Virus record (IMG/VR): IMGVR_UViG_3300044797_000185
Coordinates: 53,837-117,836 of that record
Direction: 5' to 3' (one strand)
Length of the DNA stretch: 64,000 nt
From: a virus
The notes below the pieces were generated by a model. It saw nothing but the letters and a program-made list of their open reading frames with translations, was not told the origin of the DNA and made no database searches. Made by a program: the position numbers and the translations under genes. This document shows positions 2,065 to 24,422 of this stretch, piece after piece; position 1 is the first letter of the stretch, and each line of letters starts with the position of its first letter.

Positions 2065-2931
2065 ATGGCAATCACACGAATCCAAGATGCTTCTTCAAGT
2101 GGAGCAGCTTCTACTAAAACTGTAACTATTTCTGCTTCTGGTAGTGGAAATTTACTTGTGGCTATTTTTGTAAATAGGGATCAAAATACGACAGTAACGA
2201 GTATTACGGATAATGCTGGTAATACTTATGCTCAAGCTTCTGGAGCATATGCTACTAATTTTCAAACTACAACAGATATCTGGTATGCAAAAAATTCAGT
2301 TGCGGGAGCAACGACTGTAACCTTTAATTCTACTCCAGCCCCTAGTTTTAATGAGGGTGTTTGTACTATTGTAGAATATTCAGGAGTCGACACTATAACT
2401 CCTATAGATGCTATCGGTTCTACCATAAATGGTGGAGCTTTTACTACACCCGCCTTTACAGCACCAATTATAAATAATAATTCCAATTCAGTTATCCTTT
2501 CAGCAGTTGATGTTTCGGACAATACAATAACTGGTGTAGCCAATGGTTCTTGGGTTGAATTGCCCTCTGTAACTCCTATTGTAGATCATGTCATTGTTGA
2601 ATTTTTCCCAGGAGCTACAGGTACATTTTCAACCAATTGTACACCAAGTGTATCTAATCGTTTTTCATCATCTTCTATAGCTTTTCAACCAGCATCTTCA
2701 ACTTTAACTCTTTCTCTTTCTGATTCCATATCTCTTTCAGATTCACCCGTAATTCCATCTTTTGATATTAGTCAAAGTTTATCCGATAGTGTAGTTGTTT
2801 CAGATTCATTTCCACAATCTTTTTCAGCTCAAAGTGACTTTTTAGCTCCAGTTACTGCCCCAGTAGTTGAGATGTTAGTAAATCAGTTAGTTCCTGCTCA
2901 TGTTAAAACATATTTTAAGATAGTGGAATAA
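2065..2931 (+). CDS. Beta-sandwich virion protein with Ser/Asp-rich LSLSDS repeats
   Basis: A 288-residue protein. Residues 1-205 are a Ser/Thr/Asn-rich beta-sandwich of the kind found in phage adhesin domains (TITDNAGNTY-like stretch near residue 50). Residues about 212-255 carry repeats of L-S-L-S-D-S type, probably a stalk. No catalytic motif is seen. The gene lies in the fibre cluster 17 bp after the previous stop. A receptor-binding or fibre-decoration role is inferred from composition and location. Confidence 0.55.
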   Translation: MAITRIQDASSSGAASTKTVTISASGSGNLLVAIFVNRDQNTTVTSITDNAGNTYAQASGAYATNFQTTTDIWYAKNSVAGATTVTFNSTPAPSFNEGVCTIVEYSGVDTITPIDAIGSTINGGAFTTPAFTAPIINNNSNSVILSAVDVSDNTITGVANGSWVELPSVTPIVDHVIVEFFPGATGTFSTNCTPSVSNRFSSSSIAFQPASSTLTLSLSDSISLSDSPVIPSFDISQSLSDSVVVSDSFPQSFSAQSDFLAPVTAPVVEMLVNQLVPAHVKTYFKIVE

Positions 2932-2942
2932 AGGAGAAGTTT

Positions 2943-4805
2943 ATGGCATCAGCAATTTTTACAAACGCACAGCGCATAATTGCACAAATTTTTCAATGGT
3001 TGCAGACTAGCGGTCAAACCCGCACCGCAAATCTTATTACAGATACTTTTTCAGCTGGAATAGATAATGCAACAATTTCAGGCGAAGGATTTTTAGTTGT
3101 TCCTGGTACTAATAATACCTCGGCAAATCCTTCTGTTAATGTTACATTAGGAGGTATAGCTTATGATCCTCTAGGGAATAGAATTTTCATAAGTCCATCA
3201 GATACATCTCTTTATAATCCTGCAAATGTTACGGCAACTACTAATGATGGCCTTGGTAATTTCCTTAGTACTCCTCAATCTTCTGGTGTAGTAAATATCC
3301 CTGTTACCCAAACTTCTTTAAACTATCTTTGGATAAATTACTTAGCTACTATTGATACGACTGCCTTTACACTAAATGAAGAAACGAATGCTAAGATTTT
3401 TTATAAACAAACAGATGGGTATAATATTACTGTTACTACAACAAATACTCCTCCTAATGCAAATTCTCTTTTCTTAGCAAGCATAGATATGACAGGAGGT
3501 GGTGCAGTCGCCCCCTCAAATATTTCCCAAGTAGGAAGAACTTATTATGAAATTCTTCCTAACGTTGTTCCCATAACGACTCCATTTAATAATGGGTCAA
3601 ATCGTACTCCTCAATATAATCAAAATACTCGTTATACTTTAGACGCTCATATAAAGTCAATTGGAACTGGGACAGGTATTTCGCCTTTTAACCCACATAA
3701 TATGTCGTTAGCAGATTTGGGTGTATCTACTTTAGATACCGTAGTTGGTCGTAGCCAAATTGAAGGTAATAACAATGTTATTTTAGCAGGAACTGTTGGA
3801 AATCCCTTTCCTACCGCTTCTGCCATGGCACCTAGTATCGCCATTGTAGATCCTGGAAGTGACTTCATCATCATTCAACAGCTTCTTTCATCTGAATTTG
3901 CAATCGTTAATGGAGCCGCTTATAATGTGACTGATATTTTCGGAGCTATTCCAACAAATGCTAATATATTCTTTCCACCCGTATCTGGATTTTATTATGT
4001 TTATTGGGATTCAGTTACAAAAGCTTTTGCAGTATCCACAACAAATATCTCAGCAGATGTTACGAAGCTTTTACTTGCAACTGTTACATACACTGTAAAT
4101 TTTACTCCTGGGTATAATCATCTTTCTGGTTTAACAGATCTTAGACTTATTGGAGGTACAGTTAATCTATTGCAACGTTGGACTACCGCAGGAAGACCTA
4201 CGAATCCATTAGTAGGAGAGTTTGGTTTTAACATTACTTTGGGTACATTTGAATATTGGGATGGAACTGCATGGCAACAAGTCGTTACTGCCTCTTCCAA
4301 TAGTACTGTTCCAACTGGATCATTGTTACCTTTTGCAGGTACTTCTGCCCCCGCTGGGTTCTTATTGGCTAATGGAGCTTCTGTTTCGACAGTTACTTAT
4401 TCAAATTTATTCGCAGTAATTGGATATATTTATGGGGGAGCTGGAGCAAGTTTTAATCTTCCTAATATGGTGAATAATGTTCCTGTTGGTGCAGGTAGTA
4501 TCGCTTCATTAGGAACAACCGTTGGAGCAACAACAGGAGCTGATACAGTTACACCAACACAAGTTCCTCATCAACATGCTACAACCATGGGTCATATAGG
4601 TTCAACTGGATATATAGATAATACAGATCCCTATGGTACTACAAGTCGTAATACAACTATTCAAGAGTTTGCTATGGCTGGATCTGGACCAACAACAGAA
4701 CCTTTTGATTTAACTAGCTCAGTAACACCTGCAATTAACCCTATAACAGTGAATGTACCTATTGTACAACCTTCATTGGGTCTAAATTATATTATTAAAT
4801 ATTAA
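2943..4805 (+). CDS. Tail fibre with C-terminal phage tail collar domain
   Basis: A 620-residue protein. The N-terminal half is a beta-rich fibre body that starts with an ASAIFTNAQRIIAQIFQWLQ helix. Residues about 455-520 match the phage tail collar domain: GSLLPFAGTSAPAGFLLANG, then YSNLFAVIGYIYGG and FNLPNM. After this comes a receptor-binding tip region with PHQH, and the protein ends in LGLNYIIKY, the usual terminus of collar-domain fibres. It is the last of four fibre-type genes and probably forms a host-recognition fibre. The family call is secure; the receptor is unknown. Confidence 0.8.
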   Translation: MASAIFTNAQRIIAQIFQWLQTSGQTRTANLITDTFSAGIDNATISGEGFLVVPGTNNTSANPSVNVTLGGIAYDPLGNRIFISPSDTSLYNPANVTATTNDGLGNFLSTPQSSGVVNIPVTQTSLNYLWINYLATIDTTAFTLNEETNAKIFYKQTDGYNITVTTTNTPPNANSLFLASIDMTGGGAVAPSNISQVGRTYYEILPNVVPITTPFNNGSNRTPQYNQNTRYTLDAHIKSIGTGTGISPFNPHNMSLADLGVSTLDTVVGRSQIEGNNNVILAGTVGNPFPTASAMAPSIAIVDPGSDFIIIQQLLSSEFAIVNGAAYNVTDIFGAIPTNANIFFPPVSGFYYVYWDSVTKAFAVSTTNISADVTKLLLATVTYTVNFTPGYNHLSGLTDLRLIGGTVNLLQRWTTAGRPTNPLVGEFGFNITLGTFEYWDGTAWQQVVTASSNSTVPTGSLLPFAGTSAPAGFLLANGASVSTVTYSNLFAVIGYIYGGAGASFNLPNMVNNVPVGAGSIASLGTTVGATTGADTVTPTQVPHQHATTMGHIGSTGYIDNTDPYGTTSRNTTIQEFAMAGSGPTTEPFDLTSSVTPAINPITVNVPIVQPSLGLNYIIKY

Positions 4806-4844: not shown

Positions 4845-5429
4845 ATGAAAAAGATTTGTATAAAGTGTAATATTGAAAAAGATATAGATGAATTTGGTAT
4901 TAGAAAAAATTCTAAAGATGGTCGTCATTATTATTGTAAAGATTGTGCTAATGCTGCAATAGAAAAACATTATGAAGAACATCCAGAAATGCTGGAAGTA
5001 AAGAAACAAAGACGTATAGAATATGTAATTAATAATCCTGAAAAAGTTGCTGAACAAAAATATCGATCTAGGGAGAAACATAGAGTTAAAGAAAATGCAC
5101 AAGCTTTGATTAATAGGCGAACCCTTAGAGGTAGATTTAATACAGGAAGAAATAACAATAAAAGACGTGGAATTCCAAGTAATATAACTTTTGAAGAGTG
5201 GTGTATTTTTGTAGTAAATCCCTGTCATTATTGCACTGGATCATTAGCTGAAACTGGTTTTGGTGTTGATCGAATTGACAGCAATCTTGGGTATGAGCAA
5301 GATAATTTAGTACCTTGTTGTTATATTTGTAATATTATGAAATCCACTCTTTCTACCGAAGAATTTTTTAGACATATAGAGAAAATTAGAAATTGTGTTC
5401 CCTATCAAAAATGGTTACAAAGAAAATAA
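4845..5429 (+). CDS. HNH homing-type endonuclease, inserted between virion and protease genes
   Basis: A 194-residue protein. The N-terminus has a zinc knuckle (CIKCNIEKD, then YYCKDC). The C-terminal HNH core has PCHYCTG, GVDRIDSN, LVPCCYICN and an MKSTLS tail, the usual layout of freestanding phage HNH nucleases. It probably makes a DNA break at a site in related phages lacking the gene. The middle is Lys/Arg/Glu-rich. It ends 2 bp before the downstream protease start, which suggests insertion upstream of that gene. One of six HNH genes in the window. Confidence 0.85.
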   Translation: MKKICIKCNIEKDIDEFGIRKNSKDGRHYYCKDCANAAIEKHYEEHPEMLEVKKQRRIEYVINNPEKVAEQKYRSREKHRVKENAQALINRRTLRGRFNTGRNNNKRRGIPSNITFEEWCIFVVNPCHYCTGSLAETGFGVDRIDSNLGYEQDNLVPCCYICNIMKSTLSTEEFFRHIEKIRNCVPYQKWLQRK

Positions 5430-5431
5430 AT

Positions 5432-6223
5432 ATGATACATCGTTATTCATGGCATCCAGACCTTCCTGATTTCAGAGATTTTAAGTATGCTTTGCATAGA
5501 CTTAAAGTATCTCCTATTCCTGTTGTTCTTCCTATAAAGATTGATCTTCGTTCTTTTTGCTCACCAGTTTTTGATCAAGGTCAGTATGGTTCATGTACTA
5601 GCCAATCTCTTGCGGGGCATTTGGAATTTTTAGAGCTTAAAGAGATTCGAGAGAAAACTGTTGCTCCTGAAGAGTTTGACCCAAATGCATTCACTCTGTT
5701 TAGTCGCTTGTTCATTTACTATAATGAAAGGCTAATAGAAAATACAGTAAATCAGGATAGTGGAGCACAAATCAGGGATGGTATAAAATCTTTGGCACAA
5801 TGGGGAGATTGCAAAGAAGGCAATTGGAGTTATATGCCAGGGAATGTATTTGCTAAACCTTCTGATGTTGCTTATCAAGAAGCTTCAAATCATAAAATCA
5901 GTACTTATATGCGTTTGGAGAGCTTAGAAGATATAAAAAATTGTCTTAACGAAGGCTATCCCGTTTCATTTGGTTTTACCGTATTTGAATCTTTTGAGGG
6001 ACCAACAGTAGCTAATACAGGAATTGTTCCCGTTCCTTCTTTGAATGAAGATATTGAGGGGGGTCATGCAGTTCTAGCTGTTGGATACGATGATGAACAT
6101 AATTGGTTAATAGTGCGTAATTCATGGGGTCCAATATGGGGAGATCGTGGTTATTTCTACCTTCCTTACGAATTTATTAATGATAGAAATCTTAGTGATG
6201 ACTACTGGACTATAAGGCGTTAA
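5432..6223 (+). CDS. Papain-family (C1A-like) cysteine protease
   Basis: The protein carries the C1 peptidase signature: FDQGQYGSCTSQS with the catalytic Cys, then GGHAVLAVGYDD with the catalytic His, then NSWGPIWGDRGYF with the Asn. The N-terminus HPDLPDFRDF matches phage and bacterial C1 peptidases. There is no signal peptide. In-frame upstream starts at 5393 and 5411 would overlap the HNH gene; 5432 is chosen because it follows the HNH stop, although no strong ribosome site is visible for any of them. Possible roles are virion maturation, host-protein cleavage or an entry function. The fold is sure, the role is not. Confidence 0.8.
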   Translation: MIHRYSWHPDLPDFRDFKYALHRLKVSPIPVVLPIKIDLRSFCSPVFDQGQYGSCTSQSLAGHLEFLELKEIREKTVAPEEFDPNAFTLFSRLFIYYNERLIENTVNQDSGAQIRDGIKSLAQWGDCKEGNWSYMPGNVFAKPSDVAYQEASNHKISTYMRLESLEDIKNCLNEGYPVSFGFTVFESFEGPTVANTGIVPVPSLNEDIEGGHAVLAVGYDDEHNWLIVRNSWGPIWGDRGYFYLPYEFINDRNLSDDYWTIRR

Positions 6224-10885: not shown

Positions 10886-10988
10886 GCTGAGGTAGCTCAA
10901 TGGTAGAGCAGTTGTTTTGTGAGCCTAAAATTGCGAGTGGGCTCATATAAACAACAGGTTGCAAGTTCGAGTCTTGTCCTCAGCTCCA
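10886..10988 (+). tRNA. tRNA-Thr(UGU) with a 28-nt insertion in the anticodon loop
   Basis: Acceptor GCTGAGG/CCTCAGC with encoded CCA (10986-10988), D-arm GCTC-AATGGTA-GAGC, anticodon stem GTTGT (10911-10915)/ACAAC (10951-10955), variable AGGTT, T-arm GCAAG-TTCGAGT-CTTGT. The loop between the anticodon strands is 35 nt instead of 7. Removing 10921-10948 (or the same segment shifted by one) leaves TTTGTAA, a proper loop with anticodon UGU. The GCTGA start agrees with bacterial tRNA-Thr. The insertion folds into a hairpin, TGAGCC (10920-10925) with GGCTCA (10940-10945). A functional tRNA would need this segment removed. Confidence 0.8.
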
Positions 10989-13621: not shown

Positions 13622-13630
13622 AAATATCCC

Positions 13631-13659
13631 TTGACAGATTGTTATTTACCTGCTATACT
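13631..13659 (+). promoter_or_regulatory. Sigma70-type promoter for the permuted tRNA-like RNA and polysaccharide operon
   Basis: TTGACA at 13631-13636, 17-bp spacer, TATACT at 13654-13659. The expected start (about 13666) coincides with the first base of GAGGAG, which forms the first helix of the structured RNA downstream. Confidence 0.85.
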
Positions 13660-13665
13660 TATTTT

Positions 13666-13760
13666 GAGGAGTCAATGTGGGTTCGAATCCCACTTTTGCC
13701 ATTTGGCGAAATAGCTTAATTGGATACTGAAAAGGGAACCATAAGGCAAAGCAGCTCCTC
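13666..13760 (+). ncRNA. Circularly permuted tRNA-like RNA (3' half precedes 5' half)
   Basis: Order along the RNA: anticodon-stem 3' strand GGAGT (13668-13672), short variable loop CAAT, perfect T-arm GTGGG-TTCGAAT-CCCAC (13677-13693), acceptor 3' strand TTTTGCC (13694-13700), ATTT linker, acceptor 5' strand GGCGAAA (13705-13711; 7 pairs, one G-U), TA, D-stem GCTT (13714-13717) with TTGG in the loop, a ~22-nt D-loop insertion, D-stem AAGC (13749-13752), A, anticodon-stem 5' strand GCTCC (13754-13758). The whole cloverleaf is present but permuted at the anticodon loop. GAGGAG/CTCCTC gives an alternative 6-bp end helix. No acceptable anticodon loop with U33 is seen, so a decoding role is doubtful. 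A two-piece tRNA-like or tmRNA-like RNA, or a structured mRNA leader, are the alternatives. Confidence 0.65.
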
Positions 13761-13874
13761 ACAAATTTTGTTTCTCCTCTAGGTAGTTAGGATTAAGTTC
13801 TTAACATAGCGTTCAGGGAGAGGAGCTAACGTGGGTAGAGTGAACGTAGCCCACATAATATAAAGGGAGATACC
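13761..13874 (+). promoter_or_regulatory. Structured leader between tRNA-like RNA and deacetylase gene
   Basis: CTCCTCT (13774-13780) pairs with AGAGGAG (13819-13825); GTGGG (13831-13835) pairs with CCCAC (13850-13854); CGTTCA (13810-13815) could alternatively pair with TGAACG (13841-13846). The GAGGAG, 5 nt, GTGGG, loop, CCCAC order repeats the start of the tRNA-like RNA, so competing pairings are possible. The ribosome site AAAGGGAG precedes ATG 13875. Confidence 0.45.
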
Positions 13875-14597
13875 ATGAAAAAGTTACTTATGTTGTTGGT
13901 GTTGGCTGTTCCACTTCATGCTGAAGTTACCTTTACGTTTGACGATGGCTCACGGACTCAGATTGATCATGGGTATCCAGTTCTCTTCAAATATCATTAC
14001 CCTGCGACAATCTATCTTGTTACTAAGCCATTAGGACATGATGATTGGTATATGAATTGGGGAGATGTGAAGACATTGGAACTAGCGGGTTGGGATATTG
14101 AAGCCCATACTCGAACACATCCTCATCTAGATAAGCTTACTCATAAACAACTTGTGGCTGAGCTTGATGGGTGCAGAGCAGATCTTAAGTGGCATGGTTA
14201 TCCTGCTAGGCATTTTGCTACACCATATGGTGAGACAGATCCTGCAGTTCAACGTGAACTTAAGAAAAGATTCGTTAGTGTTCGTGCTGGAGAGGTCATT
14301 GGTAATGAACTTAATTGGGAAAATAAATTAAATCGTTATAATCTCTCTATCTTTCCTTTGACGGAAAGTACAGACTTGGAATTGGTGAAACGTCTCATTG
14401 AACATGGAACTTTTGAGAAACGTTGGTTGATTCTTATGGTTCACAAAGTACTTCCAGATGGTGATCCTCATTTGAAGACTGATAGATGGAGTGTCAGTGT
14501 GAGTAAGCTTCAGGCAGCTGCAGCTTATTGCAACATTCAAGGCACCAAGGTTGTAACAGTGGATCAATACTTTAAATCTCATGGTCTGGAGAAATAA
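13875..14597 (+). CDS. Secreted polysaccharide deacetylase (CE4/NodB family)
   Basis: A 240-residue protein with a clear signal peptide (MKKLLMLLVLAVPLHA). NodB motifs: TFTFDDG (catalytic Asp and metal Asp), HTRTHPHL (metal His pair), FATPYGE. The length is that of a minimal NodB domain. CE4 enzymes remove N-acetyl groups from GlcNAc polymers such as chitin oligomers, PNAG or peptidoglycan. It lies in a cluster with a secreted protein and a processive GlcNAc-type glycosyltransferase, which points to making or modifying an extracellular polysaccharide. This stretch reads as less A+T-rich than its neighbours, so recent acquisition is possible. Confidence 0.85.
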   Translation: MKKLLMLLVLAVPLHAEVTFTFDDGSRTQIDHGYPVLFKYHYPATIYLVTKPLGHDDWYMNWGDVKTLELAGWDIEAHTRTHPHLDKLTHKQLVAELDGCRADLKWHGYPARHFATPYGETDPAVQRELKKRFVSVRAGEVIGNELNWENKLNRYNLSIFPLTESTDLELVKRLIEHGTFEKRWLILMVHKVLPDGDPHLKTDRWSVSVSKLQAAAAYCNIQGTKVVTVDQYFKSHGLEK

Positions 14598-14598
14598 T

Positions 14599-15012
14599 AT
14601 GAAAAAGCTACTCATAGTTCTATTGCTACTGTCATCGGCGGGAGTAGCCCATGCAGGTCCATTAGATTTGATCTTTGATGCTCCAGGTAGCGTCTGGGGT
14701 CGTGTAGATAGTAGTGTAAATCCCTGGGGGAACATGACACATACCCAAGCTAACATAGAACAGGGTATTAGATTCTATGACGTAAGATGGCTTACATTTT
14801 ACGGTGGTTTTACTTGGTGGCAAGAAGTTAATAGTTCTAAAGTTGGGTATTGGCAAGCGGGGGTTAAAAACACTACTTGGATTCCTAATTGGATAGTGGG
14901 TATCGAAGAAGAGGATTACGTGGTCGCTGCTCCTTCTCTTGCCAGTGGTGGGCAGCATTACGTGGTCGCATATGTCTCTACCAGTTATAGTTGGAATTTA
15001 CGGAAATATTAA
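14599..15012 (+). CDS. Secreted protein, possible beta-barrel/envelope protein, perhaps frameshifted
   Basis: A 137-residue protein with signal peptide MKKLLIVLLLLSSAGVAHA; an upstream in-frame ATG at 14581 is rejected because GGAG lies just before 14599. The mature part is aromatic-rich with alternating strands (FYGGFTWWQEV, GYWQAGVKN), as in small outer-membrane barrels. After the stop, another frame continues from about 14994 to 15173 with similar composition (RSDSLFSPNYPFGKE), so the gene may be split by a frameshift. Between the deacetylase and the glycosyltransferase it may help export or anchor the polymer; this is inference. Confidence 0.6.
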   Translation: MKKLLIVLLLLSSAGVAHAGPLDLIFDAPGSVWGRVDSSVNPWGNMTHTQANIEQGIRFYDVRWLTFYGGFTWWQEVNSSKVGYWQAGVKNTTWIPNWIVGIEEEDYVVAAPSLASGGQHYVVAYVSTSYSWNLRKY

Positions 15013-15131
15013 ATGCTCAATTTACCTGGAGGTCTGACTCTTTGTTTTCACCTAACTATCCTTTTGGCAAGGAATGTATGGCGGGGTTTTTTGTATCTAC
15101 TTTCAGGAATAAATTTGATCTTTTAAATCTC

Positions 15132-15160
15132 TTGACATTGTTGTTTACTCATGGTATACT
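15132..15160 (+). promoter_or_regulatory. Sigma70-type promoter, leaderless arrangement
   Basis: TTGACA at 15132-15137, 17-bp spacer, TATACT at 15155-15160. The ATG of the glycosyltransferase is at 15166, at the predicted start site, and no ribosome site is present. Confidence 0.85.
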
Positions 15161-15165
15161 AAAGT

Positions 15166-16248
15166 ATGGCTAAACGACTTCACGCTTTTCTATTTCCACT
15201 TCATAACGAAGAACTGGTTATCTATAAGACGCTATATAGTCTTAGGAAAGCTGGGGTTGCATGGGAAGACATGTACTTTGTAGATGATGGCTCTACAGAT
15301 AAGACAGTTGATATTTTGACCAAAGCTACATTCCCTCATCTATCCATGTTCAATGTCCTTTGCTTAACTCCGAACGTTGGTAAGACCCAGGCTCTTGTGG
15401 TAGCCTTCAAACATTTCAATCTGGCAGAGAAATATGAATGGGTCAATACTTGCGACGGTGATACTTTATTGTCTCCCGATTATTTGCAGAAGTTGATCCC
15501 AATTTTGAATGATGCTTCTACTAGTACAGCAGCGATTGCTTCACGAGTCTGTTCAATCAAAAATAGTTGGAATGCCTACACGAGCTATCGGACATGGGAA
15601 TATTGGTTAATGCAGGTTACGTATAAGAGGGCGCAAGGGTACATTAATTGCATCACTGTTCTTCCAGGTTGTGGAACCACTTTTCGTACAAGCGTGTTTG
15701 AGAAACTGAGCCAGGACCTAAAGCCAGAGATTTTGACTGAGGATATGCTGTGGACCATCCGTATTCATTTGGAAGGTCTTGGTAGGACATTATATGCCCA
15801 CTCTCTGCGGGTTTATACTCAAGATCCAGATCGTATTAAATCCTATTTTAAACAGAATTGCCGTTGGTTCCAGGGTGGTTGGCAAGTTTATAGGGAACTG
15901 AAAATGTGGCAAGTATTCAAAAGCAAAATCAATGCTGAGACTTCTTTCTTGTTCTTGGAAGGTGTCTTTTTCAGTACTCTTTTTACCTTTGCATGGTTGT
16001 GTTTGTTTAAAGGATGGTTTCCTGCATTTACCCATTATTTCTTTTGGGCTGATTGTCTGTTGTTTACAGGATTAACTCTAATAGGTGCATTGTGTGAATT
16101 GGATAATCGCTTAATTCTTTGGATGCCTTTCTTCTATCTTTTACGCATACTAAAATGCTTCATATTCTTGCATAGTTTCATTAAGATTATGATTTTTAAG
16201 TCTGATAAAAGGAAAAAACTTCTTTGGAATAAAGTGGCTCGTTATTGA
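15166..16248 (+). CDS. Processive family-2 glycosyltransferase (PgaC/NodC/hyaluronan-synthase type)
   Basis: A 360-residue membrane enzyme. GT-A motifs: FVDDGSTDK (UDP-binding DDG), NTCDGDT (DxD), PGCGTTFR, TEDMLW (catalytic base ED) and QNCRWFQGGW (the QxxRW signature of processive synthases). The C-terminal third (about residues 265-345) has three to four transmembrane segments that form the export channel in this family. It most resembles enzymes making GlcNAc-containing polymers such as PNAG, chitin oligomers or hyaluronan. Together with the CE4 deacetylase it gives a NodB/NodC or IcaB/IcaA-like pair. It has its own promoter. Confidence 0.85.
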   Translation: MAKRLHAFLFPLHNEELVIYKTLYSLRKAGVAWEDMYFVDDGSTDKTVDILTKATFPHLSMFNVLCLTPNVGKTQALVVAFKHFNLAEKYEWVNTCDGDTLLSPDYLQKLIPILNDASTSTAAIASRVCSIKNSWNAYTSYRTWEYWLMQVTYKRAQGYINCITVLPGCGTTFRTSVFEKLSQDLKPEILTEDMLWTIRIHLEGLGRTLYAHSLRVYTQDPDRIKSYFKQNCRWFQGGWQVYRELKMWQVFKSKINAETSFLFLEGVFFSTLFTFAWLCLFKGWFPAFTHYFFWADCLLFTGLTLIGALCELDNRLILWMPFFYLLRILKCFIFLHSFIKIMIFKSDKRKKLLWNKVARY

Positions 16249-16257
16249 AAATAACCC

Positions 16258-16286
16258 TTGACTTTAGTAGATAAGTATGATAGACT
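16258..16286 (+). promoter_or_regulatory. Sigma70-like promoter, leaderless arrangement
   Basis: TTGACT at 16258-16263, 17-bp spacer, TAGACT at 16281-16286. ATG 16292 is 5 nt beyond the -10 box, so the transcript should start at or near it. The in-frame ATG at 16277 lies inside the promoter and is rejected. Confidence 0.65.
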
Positions 16287-18669: not shown

Positions 18670-19521
18670 ATGATTAACAAATTAACATCTGAACAAGAAC
18701 AGCAAATAAAAGAATATTTTAATACCTACCTATCTAAAGGTTTATCTACCACACCCTCAAATAAATCCGTTGCAGAAATAGCTATTAAACGAATGTCTAA
18801 GTTATTAAATGAAAAAGAACCTGAAATAAGATGGGTTAAAAGCCCTATGGAGTTAATTAAATTGTGGAAAGCTAAATCTCTTTATTCATCTCTTTATTCA
18901 TCTCTTTATCCATCTCTTTATTCATCTCTTTATCCATCTCTTTATTCATCTCTTTATTCATCTCTTGATTCATCTCTTCGTTCATCTCTTTATTCATCTC
19001 TTGATTCATCTCTTGATTCATCTCTTTATTCATCTCTTCGTTCATCTCTTTATTCATCTCTTTATTCATCTCTTCGTTCATCTCTTTATTCATCTCTTGA
19101 TTCATCTCTTTATTCATCTCTTGATTCATCTCTTCGTTCATCTCTTTTATGGGGACAAGGAAATGCCAATTGGATTCCCTTTTTTAAATATTGCACTGAA
19201 GTATTAAAGATTAAATATGATGCCCAAGATGTTGAAAAATTAAATCTTTGGGTTAGCATGATGGAATGTTCTTATTTCCTTATATTTAAGAAGCTTGTTG
19301 TTTTAATGGAACATCCAAAAGAAATTCATGTAGATAATAAAGGATTAAACCACAATCTTGAGGATTATGCAATTAAATGGTATGATAATACGGGTATTTA
19401 CGTTGTGCATGGTGAAGTAGTTGATGCTTTAGATATTGAACAATTATTTAAGGGTAAAAAGATAACTAATTTAGAATATTTGGGTAGCAAGTACAAGGAA
19501 TCGAGTGAAAGTATATTGTAG
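18670..19521 (+). CDS. DUF6745-type protein with 22 four-residue SL[YDR]S repeats
   Basis: A 283-residue protein. Residues 1-69 are a helical N-terminus; residues 70-157 are 22 units of S-L-x-S, where x is Tyr, Asp or Arg. The C-terminal part resembles DUF6745: an IPFFKY helix, a KLVVLMEHPKEIHVDNKG strand pair and IKWYDNTGIYVVHGEVV. The very end has TNLEYLGSKY, the motif shared by many small proteins here. The repeat tract stays in frame because the unit is 12 bp, so gain or loss of units would change length without breaking the gene. Function unknown. Confidence 0.7.
   Translation: MINKLTSEQEQQIKEYFNTYLSKGLSTTPSNKSVAEIAIKRMSKLLNEKEPEIRWVKSPMELIKLWKAKSLYSSLYSSLYPSLYSSLYPSLYSSLYSSLDSSLRSSLYSSLDSSLDSSLYSSLRSSLYSSLYSSLRSSLYSSLDSSLYSSLDSSLRSSLLWGQGNANWIPFFKYCTEVLKIKYDAQDVEKLNLWVSMMECSYFLIFKKLVVLMEHPKEIHVDNKGLNHNLEDYAIKWYDNTGIYVVHGEVVDALDIEQLFKGKKITNLEYLGSKYKESSESIL
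18877..19140 (+). repeat. 12-bp tandem repeat, 22 units
   Basis: Twenty-two consecutive copies of a 12-bp unit with consensus TCTCTTTATTCA, exactly in the reading frame. Variation is confined mostly to codon 3 (TAT, GAT or CGT) and twice to codon 4 (CCA for TCA). Confidence 0.95.
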
Positions 19522-19849
19522 TCATTCCATTAAAGATTTTAATAAAGCTTCCAATTATAGTGCCTGTAAGTTATGTTTACAAGGGTGGTATGGTATTGAT
19601 CCTATTCCCGTTGTAGTGGTTGGGTATACAGAACCCTATGAGGTTGACGAAAATTACATGGATCGGTTTAAAGAGAAGGATTTATCAGCAAAGAAATTTA
19701 CTCGCTGCTTGATATGTAAAGATTTACTTGAAAAGAGAAAACATATTACCTGTAATATTCAAGCATGGTGGCGTTCTGTTGGTAAAAGACATAAAGAAAC
19801 TATTAACAGAATGCTCAGCGTGGTTATTGGATTGAGAAAAGATAAATGA
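19505..19849 (+). CDS. Cys-rich small protein, GTG start
   Basis: A 114-residue protein beginning at GTG 19505, overlapping the end of the repeat protein by 17 bp. It has YCSHS, CKLC, then CLICKD and a later C, which suggests zinc binding. The C-terminus is basic. ATGA overlap with the transporter gene. No family recognised. Confidence 0.55.
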   Translation: MKVYCSHSIKDFNKASNYSACKLCLQGWYGIDPIPVVVVGYTEPYEVDENYMDRFKEKDLSAKKFTRCLICKDLLEKRKHITCNIQAWWRSVGKRHKETINRMLSVVIGLRKDK

Positions 19850-21012
19850 ATTTCCTTTACTTTCTTGCAATGTTGTCTCATTTTTCTCAAGGTATAGCTG
19901 GTCTTGTTGGTCAACCTCTCTATTATTATCTTAGGGAAACTCTCCATTTGAGTGTATCACAGATAATGTATCTCTCCTCCCTTACTACAATTCCCTGGAT
20001 GCTAAAGCCAGTCTTTGGCTTTTTCAGTGATCTACTCCCCATCAAAAATTATCATCGAAAACCCTATATCATTCTAAGTGCTATTATTTGTAGTGTTATG
20101 GCATTTGTGATTGGATTTTCACCTACCCTAGCATTGCCATGGCTCATAGCTTTTCTTTTTGTCTATTCAATTGGTCAAGCAGGAGATAATGTAGCAATTA
20201 ATGGATTTGTTGTAGAAGAAGGCAATAGAGCAAACACTGTTGGACGATTGCAAAGCTGTCAATGGGGTTCCTTGGCTGTTGCTGAAGTGCTTACTGGAGT
20301 ATTAGGTGGTTATCTTTCTACTAAATATACTTACCATACAGCCTATGTTTTAATCGCCATTTTCCCCGCCATCATAGCAGGATCGGCATTTTATCTTAAA
20401 GAAGATAAAGCTATTCCTTTTGTTGGAAGTAAATTGCAGCCTATAAAAGATTTTTTTAAGCAACTGAAAAATAAACAGCTTCTTTTTTCTTCTTTATTTC
20501 TTTTTCTATTCTGGTTTAGTCCTTCAATTGGTACTCCTCTTATGGATAGAATGCGAACCATTGGTCTTTCTAAAATGTTTATTGGGTGGATTGGAACAAT
20601 TGGTTCAATCTTTAGTATTATAGGGGCAGCTATCTATTTCCATGTAAGTAAAACGATTGATATGAAGAAATGGTTATATTATAGCGTTATTGTTAGTACC
20701 ATAGCTACCTTTGCTTATTTGTACACTACAAAAGAGTCTTTATTGGCATATGATGTGATATTTAGCATATCAGGGCAGTTTGTGCAGCTTTTGATGCTTG
20801 GGTTGATGGCAAGGACTTGTCCAAAGGGTACGGAAGCCACTACATTTGCCCTATTAACGTCAATTGTTAATTTTGGAGGCTCCATGTCAAATGTAGTAGG
20901 GGCGAAGCTATTTGGGCTGTTTGGTTATAATGGATTGGTTATTATAAGTGGGATTGCAACATTTGCTTGTTTGCCATTTATTCCTTATTTAACCATTGAA
21001 AAAAAGGATTGA
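19846..21012 (+). CDS. MFS-type transporter resembling folate-biopterin (BT1) carriers
   Basis: A 388-residue integral membrane protein with about 11-12 hydrophobic segments. The N-terminal part matches the BT1 pattern: QPLYYYLRETL, then IPWMLKPVFGFFSDLLPI and RKPYIILSA, where the KP-x-GF-SD loop between helices 2 and 3 is characteristic. The middle has a charged cytoplasmic loop, as in two 6-helix bundles. BT1 carriers move folates or pterins, but substrate cannot be told from sequence; other MFS substrates are possible. Transporters of this size are very unusual in phages. Confidence 0.75.
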   Translation: MNFLYFLAMLSHFSQGIAGLVGQPLYYYLRETLHLSVSQIMYLSSLTTIPWMLKPVFGFFSDLLPIKNYHRKPYIILSAIICSVMAFVIGFSPTLALPWLIAFLFVYSIGQAGDNVAINGFVVEEGNRANTVGRLQSCQWGSLAVAEVLTGVLGGYLSTKYTYHTAYVLIAIFPAIIAGSAFYLKEDKAIPFVGSKLQPIKDFFKQLKNKQLLFSSLFLFLFWFSPSIGTPLMDRMRTIGLSKMFIGWIGTIGSIFSIIGAAIYFHVSKTIDMKKWLYYSVIVSTIATFAYLYTTKESLLAYDVIFSISGQFVQLLMLGLMARTCPKGTEATTFALLTSIVNFGGSMSNVVGAKLFGLFGYNGLVIISGIATFACLPFIPYLTIEKKD

Positions 21013-21037
21013 CAGTAGACAAGATATATGGTATACT
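21009..21037 (+). promoter_or_regulatory. Sigma70-type promoter
   Basis: TTGACA at 21009-21014, 17-bp spacer, TATACT at 21032-21037. A leader of about 68 nt precedes the lipoprotein ATG at 21112 with an AAGGAG ribosome site. Confidence 0.85.
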
Positions 21038-21111
21038 TATTTAGTCATAAGTAGATTAGGCAATGGGAAATTGGTTATGGCTCTGGATAAATAAAGATAA
21101 GGAGATTTAAA

Positions 21112-21600
21112 ATGAAAAGACTAGTAATGTTTGTTGTTTGTGGTTTGATGACAATTGGTTGTAGTAAGCATGATTCTTCAGTTCCAAATGCACCTACACT
21201 ACCAGCTAATTTAAATATTACTGGTTCGTATACTGCTTATGGGGTTGTTTATACATTAATTCCTCCATGTCCAAATAATGTTTGTTCATATGATGTGAAT
21301 GTTACTGTTGTAGTTACACAATCAGGAGATGAACTTACTGGAAGTTATAGTGATTCAAATGGTATTTCTGGAACACTTGTTGGAAATGTTTCCACAGATA
21401 CCCCAAGTTCTGAAAGTGGGACATTTAATCTTCTGCGGTCTGGGTATAGTGGATCACAGGCTGTTTTTTCATACACTGCAACACCTGGATTGTTATCATT
21501 TGTAGTTCAATCGGGGGGACAAAATCCATTTGTACAACATGCAAGTGCTTCTAAAAATTCAAGTTCATCTTCTGTTAGCTTTTCTGGGCTTGGATTATAA
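21112..21600 (+). CDS. Lipoprotein, unknown function
   Basis: A 162-residue protein with a lipoprotein signal (MKRLVMFVVCGLMTIGCSK; lipobox TIGC). The mature part is Ser/Thr/Gly-rich beta structure (VVVTQSGDELTGSYSD, GTLVGNVS), resembling small lipocalin-like lipoproteins. It is the only gene of its transcription unit, with its own promoter and a hairpin after the stop. Superinfection exclusion is a common role of phage lipoproteins but is only an inference. Confidence 0.7.
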   Translation: MKRLVMFVVCGLMTIGCSKHDSSVPNAPTLPANLNITGSYTAYGVVYTLIPPCPNNVCSYDVNVTVVVTQSGDELTGSYSDSNGISGTLVGNVSTDTPSSESGTFNLLRSGYSGSQAVFSYTATPGLLSFVVQSGGQNPFVQHASASKNSSSSSVSFSGLGL

Positions 21601-21610
21601 ATATTAAAAT

Positions 21611-21639
21611 TCCCTCTGTGCTCATAGTGGGCAGAGGGA
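21611..21639 (+). terminator. Possible hairpin terminator after the lipoprotein
   Basis: TCCCTCTG (21611-21618) pairs with CAGAGGGA (21632-21639). There is no good T-run after it, so termination may be weak or the hairpin may protect the mRNA 3' end. Confidence 0.45.
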
Positions 21640-21649
21640 TAAATATTAC

Positions 21650-21678
21650 TTGCTAATTAAGAATTAATATGGTATACT
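21650..21678 (+). promoter_or_regulatory. Sigma70-like promoter, leaderless arrangement
   Basis: TTGCTA at 21650-21655, 17-bp spacer, TATACT at 21673-21678. ATG 21686 begins 7 nt after the -10 box. Confidence 0.65.
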
Positions 21679-21685
21679 TAAGCAA

Positions 21686-22456
21686 ATGATAACACTAAAT
21701 GGACATCCAGTTTCAACTACCTTTTTCCCTGATCAATCTTCTCAGGTTTGGAAGATTGATCCTAAATTTTTTCTTACTAATAATAACGTCATCCGATGGG
21801 AATTCCAGGGTGAGGCAGAATTCATGCATCTTGCTCAGCTTAAAACTCTTTTGGATCTGAACTATGGGCTTGATACTACTTTGGATCTGCCTTATTTACC
21901 TTATGCTCGTCAAGATAAAGAAATTACCAATGAATCCACATTTGCTTTGTATACATTCGCTCTCTTATTGAATAGCTTGGGTTTCACCAAAGTATTTATA
22001 TTTGATCCACATAATTTGGAGCTTACACAGCGATTGATTGATAGGGTTGAGATTACAATGCCTGATGTGAAGTCATTGCTTAAAGAATTGAAAGCACTAC
22101 CTGTTTATCCTGATGCGGGAGCAGCTAAGAGATACAATGCTCCAAAGAATACACTTCGTTGTGAAAAGGTACGGGAACCACTTACTGGGGAGATCACTGG
22201 CATTAAAGTTATTGGGAAGGTGAGGCACACGAATTATCTGATCCAGGACGATCTTATAGATGGGGGAAGAACCTTCATTGAAGTAGCTAAGAAGTTATAT
22301 AAGAAGGGAGCTAAAAATGTTTATTTATATGGCTCTCATGGGATTTTTTCAAAGGGCTTGCCCCCTTTGTTTGATGCGGGGATACGAAGGATATTTACTT
22401 ACAAAGGTGAAGCTTTTTGGAGTTCTAAGTGCGAGATTTTTTATAAAACTATATGA
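21686..22456 (+). CDS. PRPP-synthetase-like enzyme (Prs or NARP1 ADPR-PP synthetase)
   Basis: A 256-residue protein of the ribose-phosphate pyrophosphokinase fold: YLPYARQDKE (ATP-binding loop of Prs), FDPHN and LIQDDLIDGGRT (PRPP-binding loop). It is shorter than cellular Prs (about 310-320 residues). Next comes an HNH gene and then a Nampt homologue. Phages carry this pair either for PRPP/NMN synthesis or, as the NARP1 pathway, to rebuild NAD+ from ADP-ribose and nicotinamide after host NADase defence. Sequence alone does not decide between the two. Confidence 0.8.
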   Translation: MITLNGHPVSTTFFPDQSSQVWKIDPKFFLTNNNVIRWEFQGEAEFMHLAQLKTLLDLNYGLDTTLDLPYLPYARQDKEITNESTFALYTFALLLNSLGFTKVFIFDPHNLELTQRLIDRVEITMPDVKSLLKELKALPVYPDAGAAKRYNAPKNTLRCEKVREPLTGEITGIKVIGKVRHTNYLIQDDLIDGGRTFIEVAKKLYKKGAKNVYLYGSHGIFSKGLPPLFDAGIRRIFTYKGEAFWSSKCEIFYKTI

Positions 22457-22953
22457 GTGGAAAACTTGTAGATCCAGTAAAACGATTTTGGGTAAAAGTA
22501 GATAAATCTATTGGTCTTGGTCCTAAAGGAGATTGTTGGGAATGGATTGCAGGAAGATTTACAAATGGATATGGGCAATTTTCTACTGGGAAAGCTAAAA
22601 TTTGTGCCCATAGGTTTTCTTACATTTTAGAACATGGGGATATTGACAACCAATTGAAAGTTTGCCATACTTGTGATAATAGAAAGTGTGTACGTCCGAG
22701 GCATTTGTTTTTAGGTACTCAATTGGATAATATACATGATATGATAAATAAAGGACGAAAAGTTAATGGGGATAATTCTCATTCCAAAAATGGAAGAGCA
22801 AGACTTAACGAGATGGAAGTTGGTGAAATTAAAGAATTACATATGAGAAAAACATCTATTGCTCAGTTAGCACGTACATATGGTGTTGGTGAGTCTACAG
22901 TACGCCATATTGTTCAAGGTCATACCTGGAAAAACAAAGGAGAAATAAAATGA
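22453..22953 (+). CDS. HNH_3-type homing endonuclease with C-terminal HTH
   Basis: A 166-residue protein: CWEWIAGRFTNGYGQF start, HRFSYILEHG, VCHTCDNRKCVRPRHLFLGT (the zinc/HNH core of HNH_3) and ENIHDM-like DNIHDMINKGR. Residues about 115-160 hold a resolvase-like HTH (SIAQLARTYGVGESTVRHIVQG) that probably recognises DNA. It overlaps both prs-like and Nampt genes by 4 bp, so it has invaded a functional pair without disrupting coupling. Confidence 0.85.
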   Translation: MSGKLVDPVKRFWVKVDKSIGLGPKGDCWEWIAGRFTNGYGQFSTGKAKICAHRFSYILEHGDIDNQLKVCHTCDNRKCVRPRHLFLGTQLDNIHDMINKGRKVNGDNSHSKNGRARLNEMEVGEIKELHMRKTSIAQLARTYGVGESTVRHIVQGHTWKNKGEIK

Positions 22954-24422
22954 TAAATCCAATGCTATTATGTGACGGTTATAAAACAGGACATAGAATT
23001 CAATTTCCAAAGGGAACTGAATTAGTTTATTCCAATTTTACAGCAAGAGGAAGTCGTATGCCAGGAGTAGATCATGTGGTAATATTTGGGGTTCAATATT
23101 TCTTAATGGAATATTTGGTTAAACAATTTAATGAAGAATTCTTCAAGAAACCAAAGACAGAAGTAGTAGCTTCATATAAACGAAGAATGGATACTTATCT
23201 AGGGCCAGGAGCAGTTCCTGTTGAGCATATTGCAGCTTTGCATGACTTGGGTTATTTGCCAGTAAGAATTAAAGCATTGCCCGAAGGTACGCTTTGCCCC
23301 ATTCGGGTTCCTTTTTTAACGATTGTAAATACTTTAGCTGAATTTTATTGGGTGACAAATTATTTAGAAACTCTGATGTCTAGTATTTGTTGGTTTCCTA
23401 TTACGTCAGCAACAATAGCTCACCAATACCGTAAACTTTTGGATCAGTATGCTGCTGATACTTCAGATATGCCTGATTTTGTTGGTTGGACAGGCCATGA
23501 TTTTAGTTTCAGGGGGCAAACAAGTGTGGAATCCGCTGTAATTAGTGGTGCTGCCCATTTGCTTAGTTTTACTGGGACAGATACTATTCCTGCTATTGAC
23601 TTTTTGGAACAGTATTATGGGGCTAATGCAGAGATTGAATTGATTGGTGGAAGTGTTCCAGCAACCGAGCATTCTGTTGCTTGTATGGGTGGGCAATTTA
23701 ATGAAGCAGAAACATATCGAAGACTTATTACAGAAGTGTATCCTAAAGGTATTGTCAGTATAGTTAGTGATACATGGGATTTTTATAAAGTTTTGAATGA
23801 GGTCATAAGAGATCTTAAAGATGTTATTTTAGCTCGTGATGGCAAAGTGGTTATTCGCCCTGATAGTGGTAATCCTACAAAGATCATTTGTGGTGATCCA
23901 GGTGCTCCTGTGGGTAGTTTAGAATATAAAGGCACTATTGAGATTCTATGGGAGATCTTTGGTGGTACAATCAATTCTAAGGGCTTTAAACAGCTAGATC
24001 CTCATATTGGGGCAATCTATGGTGATTCTATCACTTTGGAGCGTTGTACAGCCATTTGTGAGGGTTTAAAGGCTAAAGGATTTGCTTCAACTAACATGGT
24101 TTTCGGAATTGGATCATATACATACCAATATGTAACCAGAGATACTTTTGGCTTTGCCATTAAAGCAACTTACGGCATTATTAATGGTCAACCTATTGAA
24201 TTGTTTAAACAGCCCAAAACAGACAATGGAGTTAAAAATAGTGCTAAAGGATTACTTCGAGTTAATGAAGATTTAACATTATCCGAAGGTGTTACCTGGG
24301 AAGAGGAAGGTCAGGGCTTGCTTCAAATAGTATTTGAGAATAGTAAAATTGTTAAGGTTCAGACTTTGAGTGAGATTCGTAACAGATTAGCAGCATCTAG
24401 CAAAGTCCTGGTTACGAAGTAA
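22950..24422 (+). CDS. Nicotinamide phosphoribosyltransferase homologue (Nampt/Namat)
   Basis: A 490-residue protein of the Nampt family: DGYKTGHRIQFPKGTELVYSN-type start (read in pieces DGYKTGH and YSNFTARGSR), FWVTNYLETLMSS-type helix, GWTGHDFSFRGQ, VPATEHSV, SDTWDFYKV, VVIRPDSGNP and IYGDSITLER. Substrate-binding Asp/Arg residues of the type II PRTase pocket appear intact. It converts nicotinamide and PRPP to NMN, or in NARP1 condenses nicotinamide with ADPR-pyrophosphate to NAD+. The product pyrophosphate could be removed by the phage PPase at 26123. Length matches the family. Confidence 0.9.
   Translation: MINPMLLCDGYKTGHRIQFPKGTELVYSNFTARGSRMPGVDHVVIFGVQYFLMEYLVKQFNEEFFKKPKTEVVASYKRRMDTYLGPGAVPVEHIAALHDLGYLPVRIKALPEGTLCPIRVPFLTIVNTLAEFYWVTNYLETLMSSICWFPITSATIAHQYRKLLDQYAADTSDMPDFVGWTGHDFSFRGQTSVESAVISGAAHLLSFTGTDTIPAIDFLEQYYGANAEIELIGGSVPATEHSVACMGGQFNEAETYRRLITEVYPKGIVSIVSDTWDFYKVLNEVIRDLKDVILARDGKVVIRPDSGNPTKIICGDPGAPVGSLEYKGTIEILWEIFGGTINSKGFKQLDPHIGAIYGDSITLERCTAICEGLKAKGFASTNMVFGIGSYTYQYVTRDTFGFAIKATYGIINGQPIELFKQPKTDNGVKNSAKGLLRVNEDLTLSEGVTWEEEGQGLLQIVFENSKIVKVQTLSEIRNRLAASSKVLVTK

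What the first reader, a model, noticed from the sequence alone, without database searches (positions are those of the whole stretch)
13631..16248. Phage-encoded exopolysaccharide module: CE4 deacetylase, secreted protein and processive glycosyltransferase
A secreted NodB-type deacetylase, a secreted aromatic-rich protein and a processive GT2 with DDG, DxD, ED and QxxRW motifs sit together, resembling NodB/NodC or IcaB/IcaA (PNAG) pairs. The only well-known viral analogues are chlorovirus hyaluronan and chitin synthases. The infected cell might coat itself with a deacetylated GlcNAc polymer, blocking superinfection or aggregating cells. The deacetylase follows the permuted tRNA-like RNA, so expression may be linked to it.
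Basis: partly seen in the sequence, partly recalled or inferred. Interest (0 to 1): 0.8.

Follow-up and report, generated by a model that had tools for sequence, protein, structure and literature searches.

The report
Phage cassette for a surface polysaccharide
A virus of bacteria carries a small inserted block of genes for an enzyme with the fold of hyaluronan-making enzymes, a sugar-trimming enzyme and a secreted partner, which probably lets it recoat its infected host; a second, unrelated phage carries the same enzyme pair, so this is unlikely to be an accident, but no product has been shown.

Summary
The record is a tailed-phage fragment (117,836 bp). Positions 13631-16248 hold a Sec-exported CE4 deacetylase, a small exported aromatic-rich protein (P2), and a membrane GT2 with intact DDG, DxD, TED and QxxRW motifs. 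The block is a discrete insert: a syntenic relative (L010) has the same flanking genes 54 bp apart, without the enzymes or the RNA. An unrelated phage contig (L045, 169,608 bp) has an exported CE4 overlapping a GT2 that is 31% identical end to end, followed by an exported protein faintly like P2. The GT2 model matches chlorovirus hyaluronan synthase (Z 27.3, 333 residues), but both phage GT2s lack the N-terminal transmembrane helices and this one has only 2-3 at the C terminus, so a full export channel is not supported in the monomer. It is not a PgaC/IcaA or NodC member (scores far below cut-offs; separate clade). Best reading: a phage-borne surface-glycan cassette in which the GT2 makes a HexNAc-type glycan and the CE4 N-deacetylates it in the periplasm. 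Sugar, length and purpose are inferred. The 'permuted tRNA-like RNA' resembles the YrlA Y RNA and has its own promoter; the GT2 has a separate, apparently leaderless promoter.

The parts
13631..13659 (+). promoter-like site TTGACA-17-TATACT with extended TG; predicted start 13666
   Evidence: one of a recurring set of near-identical + strand sites in this phage
13666..13760 (+). YrlA-like (Y RNA-like) RNA: closing stem GAGGAGU/AGCUCCUC, T-arm GTGGGTTCGAATCCCAC, acceptor-like hairpin TTTTGCC-ATTT-GGCGAAA
   Evidence: Rfam RF02553 29.3 bits, E 2.1e-4, below gathering score 69; fold; predicted transcript start coincides with first base of the stem; absent from relatives L009/L010
13875..14597 (+). 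exported CE4 polysaccharide deacetylase (NodB homology domain), 240 aa
   Evidence: PF01522 71 bits; motifs; signal peptide MKKLLMLLVLAVPLHA; AAGGGAG ribosome site at 13863-13869
14599..15012 (+). P2, exported aromatic-rich small protein of predicted beta character, 137 aa
   Evidence: signal peptide; no family match; faint similarity to L045:7096-7977 in the matching cassette
15132..15160 (+). promoter-like site TTGACA-17-TATACT in front of the GT2; ATG follows after 5 nt (apparently leaderless)
15166..16248 (+). membrane GT2 with DDG, DxD, TED, QxxRW; hyaluronan-synthase-like fold with 2-3 C-terminal membrane helices, none N-terminal; 360 aa
13622..16257 (.). extent of the inserted cassette relative to syntenic phage record L010
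   Evidence: same flanking genes 54 bp apart in L010

Best explanation
An accessory cassette of a tailed phage, probably of a Gram-negative host, that alters the surface glycan of the infected cell. The GT2, in the inner membrane with its catalytic domain in the cytoplasm, builds a glycan from a host nucleotide sugar, most likely UDP-GlcNAc or another HexNAc because a deacetylase is paired with it. The glycan reaches the periplasm, where the exported CE4 removes N-acetyl groups; P2, exported and possibly an outer-membrane barrel, helps retention or export. The resulting cationic aminoglycan would mask receptors against other phages, or alter adhesion, during infection. Shown here: gene content, intact catalytic motifs, fold, discrete insertion, recurrence of CE4+GT2 in another phage. 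Inferred: sugar, polymer length, export route, role of P2, benefit to the phage.
For: Motifs and families. Discrete insertion in an otherwise syntenic region; not found in 19 related or comparison phage records (the CE4 family search had working positive controls, the GT2 search had none). Independent recurrence: L045 has exported CE4 (26% over 178 aa, 22 SD over shuffles), a GT2 (31% over 355 aa) overlapping it by 4 bp, an exported P2-like protein and a galactose-oxidase-like gene; L045 lies on a phage contig with a tail sheath. Model pLDDT 77, pTM 0.80 matches chlorovirus HAS Z 27.3, rmsd 3.1, 333 residues, then chitin and cellulose synthases. A Prevotella protein fuses GH18-CE4-GT2 in one chain, an independent sign that these two enzymes act together.
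Against: Both phage GT2s lack the N-terminal TM helices of HAS, PgaC and NodC; the model aligns to chlorovirus HAS residues 81-452 only, so a monomer channel is incomplete and a short or lipid-linked product is possible. No PgaD/IcaD-like partner and no large export porin in the cassette. P2 similarity is weak (25 of 1000 shuffles reach it) and its model is unusable (pLDDT 38). Host and expression are unknown.
Confidence: 0.5

Rival explanations
1. Lipid-linked aminosugar pathway: the GT2 loads a single N-acyl sugar onto undecaprenyl phosphate and the CE4 deacylates it for transfer to lipid A or O-antigen, as in ArnC/ArnD.
For: Without N-terminal TM helices the GT2 has the size and C-terminal anchoring of such transferases; single-sequence PDB search hits ArnC first (E 1.6e-4); archaeal mannosyltransferase PcManGT scores Z 23.7.
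Against: ArnC similarity covers only residues 9-112, whereas TED and QxxRW are intact and the HMM match to PgaC runs 7-285; hyaluronan, chitin and cellulose synthases rank above ArnC; the CE4 here is exported; no ArnE/F/T-like transferase or flippase in the cassette.
Confidence: 0.2
2. O-antigen or serotype conversion of the GtrABC type, with the GT2 as GtrB.
For: Best PHROG is GtrB-like phrog_841 (9e-9).
Against: Match covers residues 9-128 only; no GtrA-like flippase or GtrC; an exported deacetylase is not part of gtr clusters (own knowledge); QxxRW present.
Confidence: 0.05
3. Two unrelated accessory functions: the CE4 acts on peptidoglycan or existing host capsule (protection from lysozyme-like enzymes, or lysis help) and the GT2 glycosylates something else.
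For: Separate promoters for CE4-P2 and GT2; CE4 domains occur without a GT2 in tail proteins of Gordonia phages and in phage G.
Against: CE4 and GT2 are neighbours in both phages, overlapping by 4 bp in L045, and fused in Prevotella; here they sit in one inserted block.
Confidence: 0.2
4. Non-functional or transient bacterial passenger DNA.
For: Slightly higher GC (39-44% against about 37% in neighbours).
Against: All catalytic residues intact in both enzymes; phage-type promoters placed in front of each unit.
Confidence: 0.05

Closest known systems
Chlorovirus hyaluronan synthase (Cv-HAS, PDB 7SP6-9, 8SNC/8SNE)
   Same: virus-encoded GT2; catalytic domain, interface helices and first C-terminal helices match (Z 27.3)
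   Different: 12-15% identity; phage protein lacks N-terminal TM helices and the last C-terminal part; its virus infects bacteria; paired with CE4
PgaC/IcaA (PNAG synthase) with PgaB/IcaB deacetylase
   Same: GT2 with DxD, ED, QxxRW plus CE4 N-deacetylase in one locus
   Different: scores far below equivalog cut-offs; no PgaD/IcaD, no N-terminal TMs, separate clade; CE4 lacks the PgaB C-terminal domain
NodC/NodB (chitooligosaccharide synthase and deacetylase)
   Same: GT2+CE4 pairing; small number of C-terminal TM helices
   Different: scores 56 of 550 and 17 of 240; NodB is cytoplasmic (own knowledge), this CE4 is exported
L045 cassette (IMGVR_UViG_3300043788_000023)
   Same: exported CE4, GT2 without N-terminal TM, exported P2-like protein
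   Different: different order, extra galactose-oxidase-like and GH16 genes, GC about 57%, no YrlA-like RNA found there
Jumbo and cyanophage capsule/LPS glycosyltransferase clusters (PMC7824862)
   Same: phage-borne host surface glycan change proposed against superinfection
   Different: those use NDP-sugar enzymes and several glycosyltransferases, not a synthase plus deacetylase pair
NfrA/NfrB exopolysaccharide system of E. coli (PMC8669469, PMC8669472)
   Same: inner-membrane glycan synthase with an outer-membrane partner; surface glycan tied to phage infection
   Different: chromosomal, c-di-GMP controlled; no CE4 known to me; P2 shows no NfrA match

Membership tests
CE4 / NodB homology deacetylase (PF01522) | Pfam score over gathering cut-off | tested here: met
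   71.0 bits against 23.1
CE4 / NodB homology deacetylase (PF01522) | Asp/His/His metal triad and catalytic Asp and His | tested here: met
   D23, D24, H78, H82, H190 present and aligned with L045 CE4; FATPYG motif
GT2 synthase-type (processive) glycosyltransferase | D, DxD, (T)ED, QxxRW motifs | tested here: met
   D41, D97/D99, E192/D193, Q230/R233/W234
GT2 synthase-type (processive) glycosyltransferase | membrane channel for the growing chain | tested here: inconclusive
   no N-terminal TM; 2-3 C-terminal helices; aligned to Cv-HAS 81-452 only
GT2 synthase-type (processive) glycosyltransferase | polymer product | not testable with these tools
   needs biochemistry
PgaC/IcaA (TIGR03937) | equivalog cut-off 422.3 bits | tested here: not met
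   80.2 bits
PgaC/IcaA (TIGR03937) | tree placement with PgaC/IcaA | tested here: not met
   PgaC+IcaA 100/99 apart from window+L045+Mesorhizobium 95/97
NodC (TIGR04242) | equivalog cut-off 550 bits | tested here: not met
   56.2 bits
IcaB / PgaB / NodB / HfsH deacetylase | equivalog cut-offs | tested here: not met
   27.7/248, 25.5/322, 17.4/240, 48.6/400 bits
Hyaluronan synthase | fold of catalytic and interface region | tested here: met
   Z 27.3, rmsd 3.1, 333 aligned
Hyaluronan synthase | N-terminal TM pair | tested here: not met
   catalytic domain begins at residue 4
GtrB O-antigen conversion | gtrA-gtrB-gtrC cluster | tested here: not met
   no GtrA-like gene in the cassette; only partial GtrB match
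YrlA Y RNA (RF02553) | Rfam gathering score 69 | tested here: not met
   29.3 bits, full model length 1-114
YrlA Y RNA (RF02553) | tRNA-like module closed by a stem (permuted order) | tested here: met
   fold
YrlA Y RNA (RF02553) | Ro60 (TROVE) partner | tested here: inconclusive
   none in the 117.8 kb record; record is a fragment and the host may supply it

The most novel reading that the evidence does not exclude
A tailed phage carries a self-contained cassette (synthase, exported deacetylase, exported partner, and a Y RNA-like leader) that makes its infected host secrete a deacetylated aminopolysaccharide, with a shortened hyaluronan-synthase-type enzyme lacking the N-terminal membrane helices; the same kind of cassette has been gained by at least one unrelated phage.
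Probability: 0.35. Interest if true: 0.8.

Novelty: new variant of a known kind. Interest (0 to 1): 0.6.

Why it matters
Phages are known to change host O-antigen or capsule, but a two-enzyme module for making and deacetylating a glycan, with a hyaluronan-synthase fold, was not found in any phage paper I could search. If real, it would be a tailed-phage counterpart of the hyaluronan and chitin coats made by chlorovirus-infected algae, and a simple system for testing whether phages coat their infected cells. The shortened GT2 would also test how few membrane helices a glycan synthase needs.

Tried and rejected
Single-protein scans of viral contigs for GT2, CE4 and P2 found nothing; the one genome-contig scan gave only a GtrB-like Paenibacillus hit. 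Several 'phage' records hitting the GT2 look like bacterial chromosome: Acinetobacter MD-2021a carries pgaABCD, Staphylococcus SA 1306 Kay carries icaR/icaA/icaB-like genes, MT836476 carries ribosomal-protein and nusG-like ORFs; I did not use them as phage evidence. The annotated Acinetobacter pga locus and the ica-like locus served as a yardstick. P2 structure prediction failed (pLDDT 38). P2 similarity to the L045 protein is only suggestive (z 2.4). PADLOC: no hits. I considered a degraded N-terminal TM upstream of the GT2 start: the frame has stops, and L045 lacks it too. I considered a tmRNA for the RNA: Rfam gives YrlA, not tmRNA. Relatives cannot be drawn for a virus record, nor centred on a plasmid locus, so the cellular source of the cassette was not traced.

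Full report
What the record is. The window lies in a 117,836-bp virus record, linear, completeness unknown. It carries tail collar/fibre proteins, a T4-type RNA ligase/tail-fibre attachment protein and a transglycosylase, a family A DNA polymerase related to phage polymerases and a phage DNA helicase: a tailed phage. Lipoprotein and signal-peptide ORFs, one faintly spanin-like (0.06), suggest a Gram-negative host (inference).

The module. Three ORFs occupy 13875-16248. The CE4 passes PF01522 at three times its cut-off and keeps its metal and catalytic residues. The GT2 keeps D41, DxD 97-99, TED 191-193 and QxxRW 230-234. P2 is exported, aromatic-rich and matches no family.

A discrete insert. 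Record L010 (IMGVR_UViG_3300015360_000046) shares with the window the helicase, the metallophosphoesterase (50% identical), a small Cys-rich ORF (58% over 36 aa), a small exported protein (38%), the BT1-type transporter (50%), PRPP synthetase and NAMPT (74%), in the same order. In L010 the phosphoesterase stop and the next start are 54 bp apart; in the window the same two genes are separated by 13622-16276, which holds the RNA, CE4, P2 and GT2. The more distant L009 also lacks them and has other genes in that slot, including a collagen-like exported protein. Neither GT2 nor CE4 was found in 19 phage records reached through helicase and NAMPT relatives, L009 and L010 included. The CE4 family search had working positive controls; the GT2 search had none, so its empty answer is weaker.

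Recurrence. A profile search found one full-length GT2 relative among viral contigs: L045 on a 169,608-bp contig with a tail sheath and NAMPT. There an exported CE4 (26% over 178 aa) overlaps by 4 bp a GT2 (31% over 355 aa, BLAST E 9e-54), followed by an exported protein and preceded by a galactose-oxidase-like protein. The GT2 and CE4 similarities are 73 and 22 SD above shuffles; P2 is only 2.4 SD, so its homology is a lead. Both phage GT2s lack the N-terminal TM that their plasmid relative in Mesorhizobium has. In a 15-row tree these three form one clade (95/97) apart from PgaC/IcaA. A Prevotella protein joins GH18, CE4 and GT2 in one chain.

Structure. The GT2 model (pLDDT 77, pTM 0.80) matches chlorovirus hyaluronan synthase first by Foldseek and by VIA-align (Z 27.3, rmsd 3.1, 333 residues), then vertebrate HAS, an archaeal mannosyltransferase, chitin synthases and cellulose synthases. 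A three-sequence profile also finds HAS chains over 300 positions in the PDB (E 3e-9). The matched HAS range is 81-452: N-terminal helices are absent. Residues 257-282 and 286-311 look transmembrane, though 256-275 is modelled with low confidence; 320-343 is hydrophobic but carries R327, K330, H336 and K340, and could be a third TM or an interface helix. A complete channel in the monomer is therefore not supported, though an oligomer or a short product is possible.

Expression. Near-identical promoters (TTGACA-17-TATACT, TG-extended) stand before the RNA (13631) and the GT2 (15132) and recur across the record on the + strand. The first predicts a transcript starting at 13666, exactly the first base of the RNA's closing stem. 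The second leaves 5 nt before the GT2 ATG, an apparently leaderless message; 6 of 14 such promoters have ATG 5-7 nt after the -10 box against 10 of 115 control hexamers (Fisher p 0.002). So the RNA may lead the CE4-P2 message, but the GT2 need not depend on it. The RNA matches Rfam YrlA over its full length at E 2e-4, below the curated score, and folds with T-arm and acceptor hairpin inside a closing stem. No TROVE/Ro60 gene is in the record.

Literature. Jumbo and cyanophage capsule/LPS glycosyltransferase clusters have been proposed to block superinfection (PMC7824862). Chloroviruses encode hyaluronan or chitin synthases, and 24 of 43 a polysaccharide deacetylase domain (PMC5408694). Viral CE4 and GT2 genes have been listed separately in mangrove soil viromes (PMC6460857). 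I found no report of the pair in a phage in the held library, which is not proof of absence.

Verdict. Real, intact, present as an inserted block, recurring in a second phage, and probably a host-surface glycan module. Polymer, sugar and benefit are unproven.

Noticed in passing
window 13666-13760: YrlA-like (Y RNA-like) RNA with its own promoter; a second GAGGAGCT near 13820 could pair with AGCTCCTC at 13753 instead of the closing stem, an alternative structure ahead of the CE4 start.
   Followed up: partly
window 6706, 15132, 16258, 48729, 58675; L034:13822; L010 near 6286: Recurring strong sigma-70-type promoters whose -10 box lies 5-6 nt before an ATG, suggesting systematic leaderless mRNAs in this phage group.
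   Followed up: partly
L051:7266-8687: Another phage contig with a methyltransferase-CE4 fusion among glycosyltransferase-like genes next to a portal-like protein.
   Followed up: no
L045:3246-4943 and 2296-3156: Galactose-oxidase-like protein and GH16 enzyme beside the L045 CE4-GT2 pair; recalls CslA-GlxA of Streptomyces (own knowledge).
   Followed up: no
L045:973-1090: 118-nt tmRNA-like match (23.8 bits, below cut-off) between tRNA genes, with two T-arm-like motifs.
   Followed up: no
window 18670-19521: ORF with a long SSL(Y/D/R) tandem repeat (SLYSSLYSSLDSSLRSSL...).
   Followed up: no
window 19846-24422: BT1-type MFS transporter followed by PRPP synthetase and nicotinamide phosphoribosyltransferase, suggesting NAD salvage with its own transporter.
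   Followed up: no
window 10886-10985: Second tRNA found by Rfam (60 bits) but not by ARAGORN.
   Followed up: no
window 5393-6223: Papain-family (C1) protease encoded by the phage.
   Followed up: no
OR844989, CAKLQH020000004, MT836476 in the phage collection: Records labelled phage that appear to be bacterial chromosome (ica, pga, ribosomal genes).
   Followed up: partly
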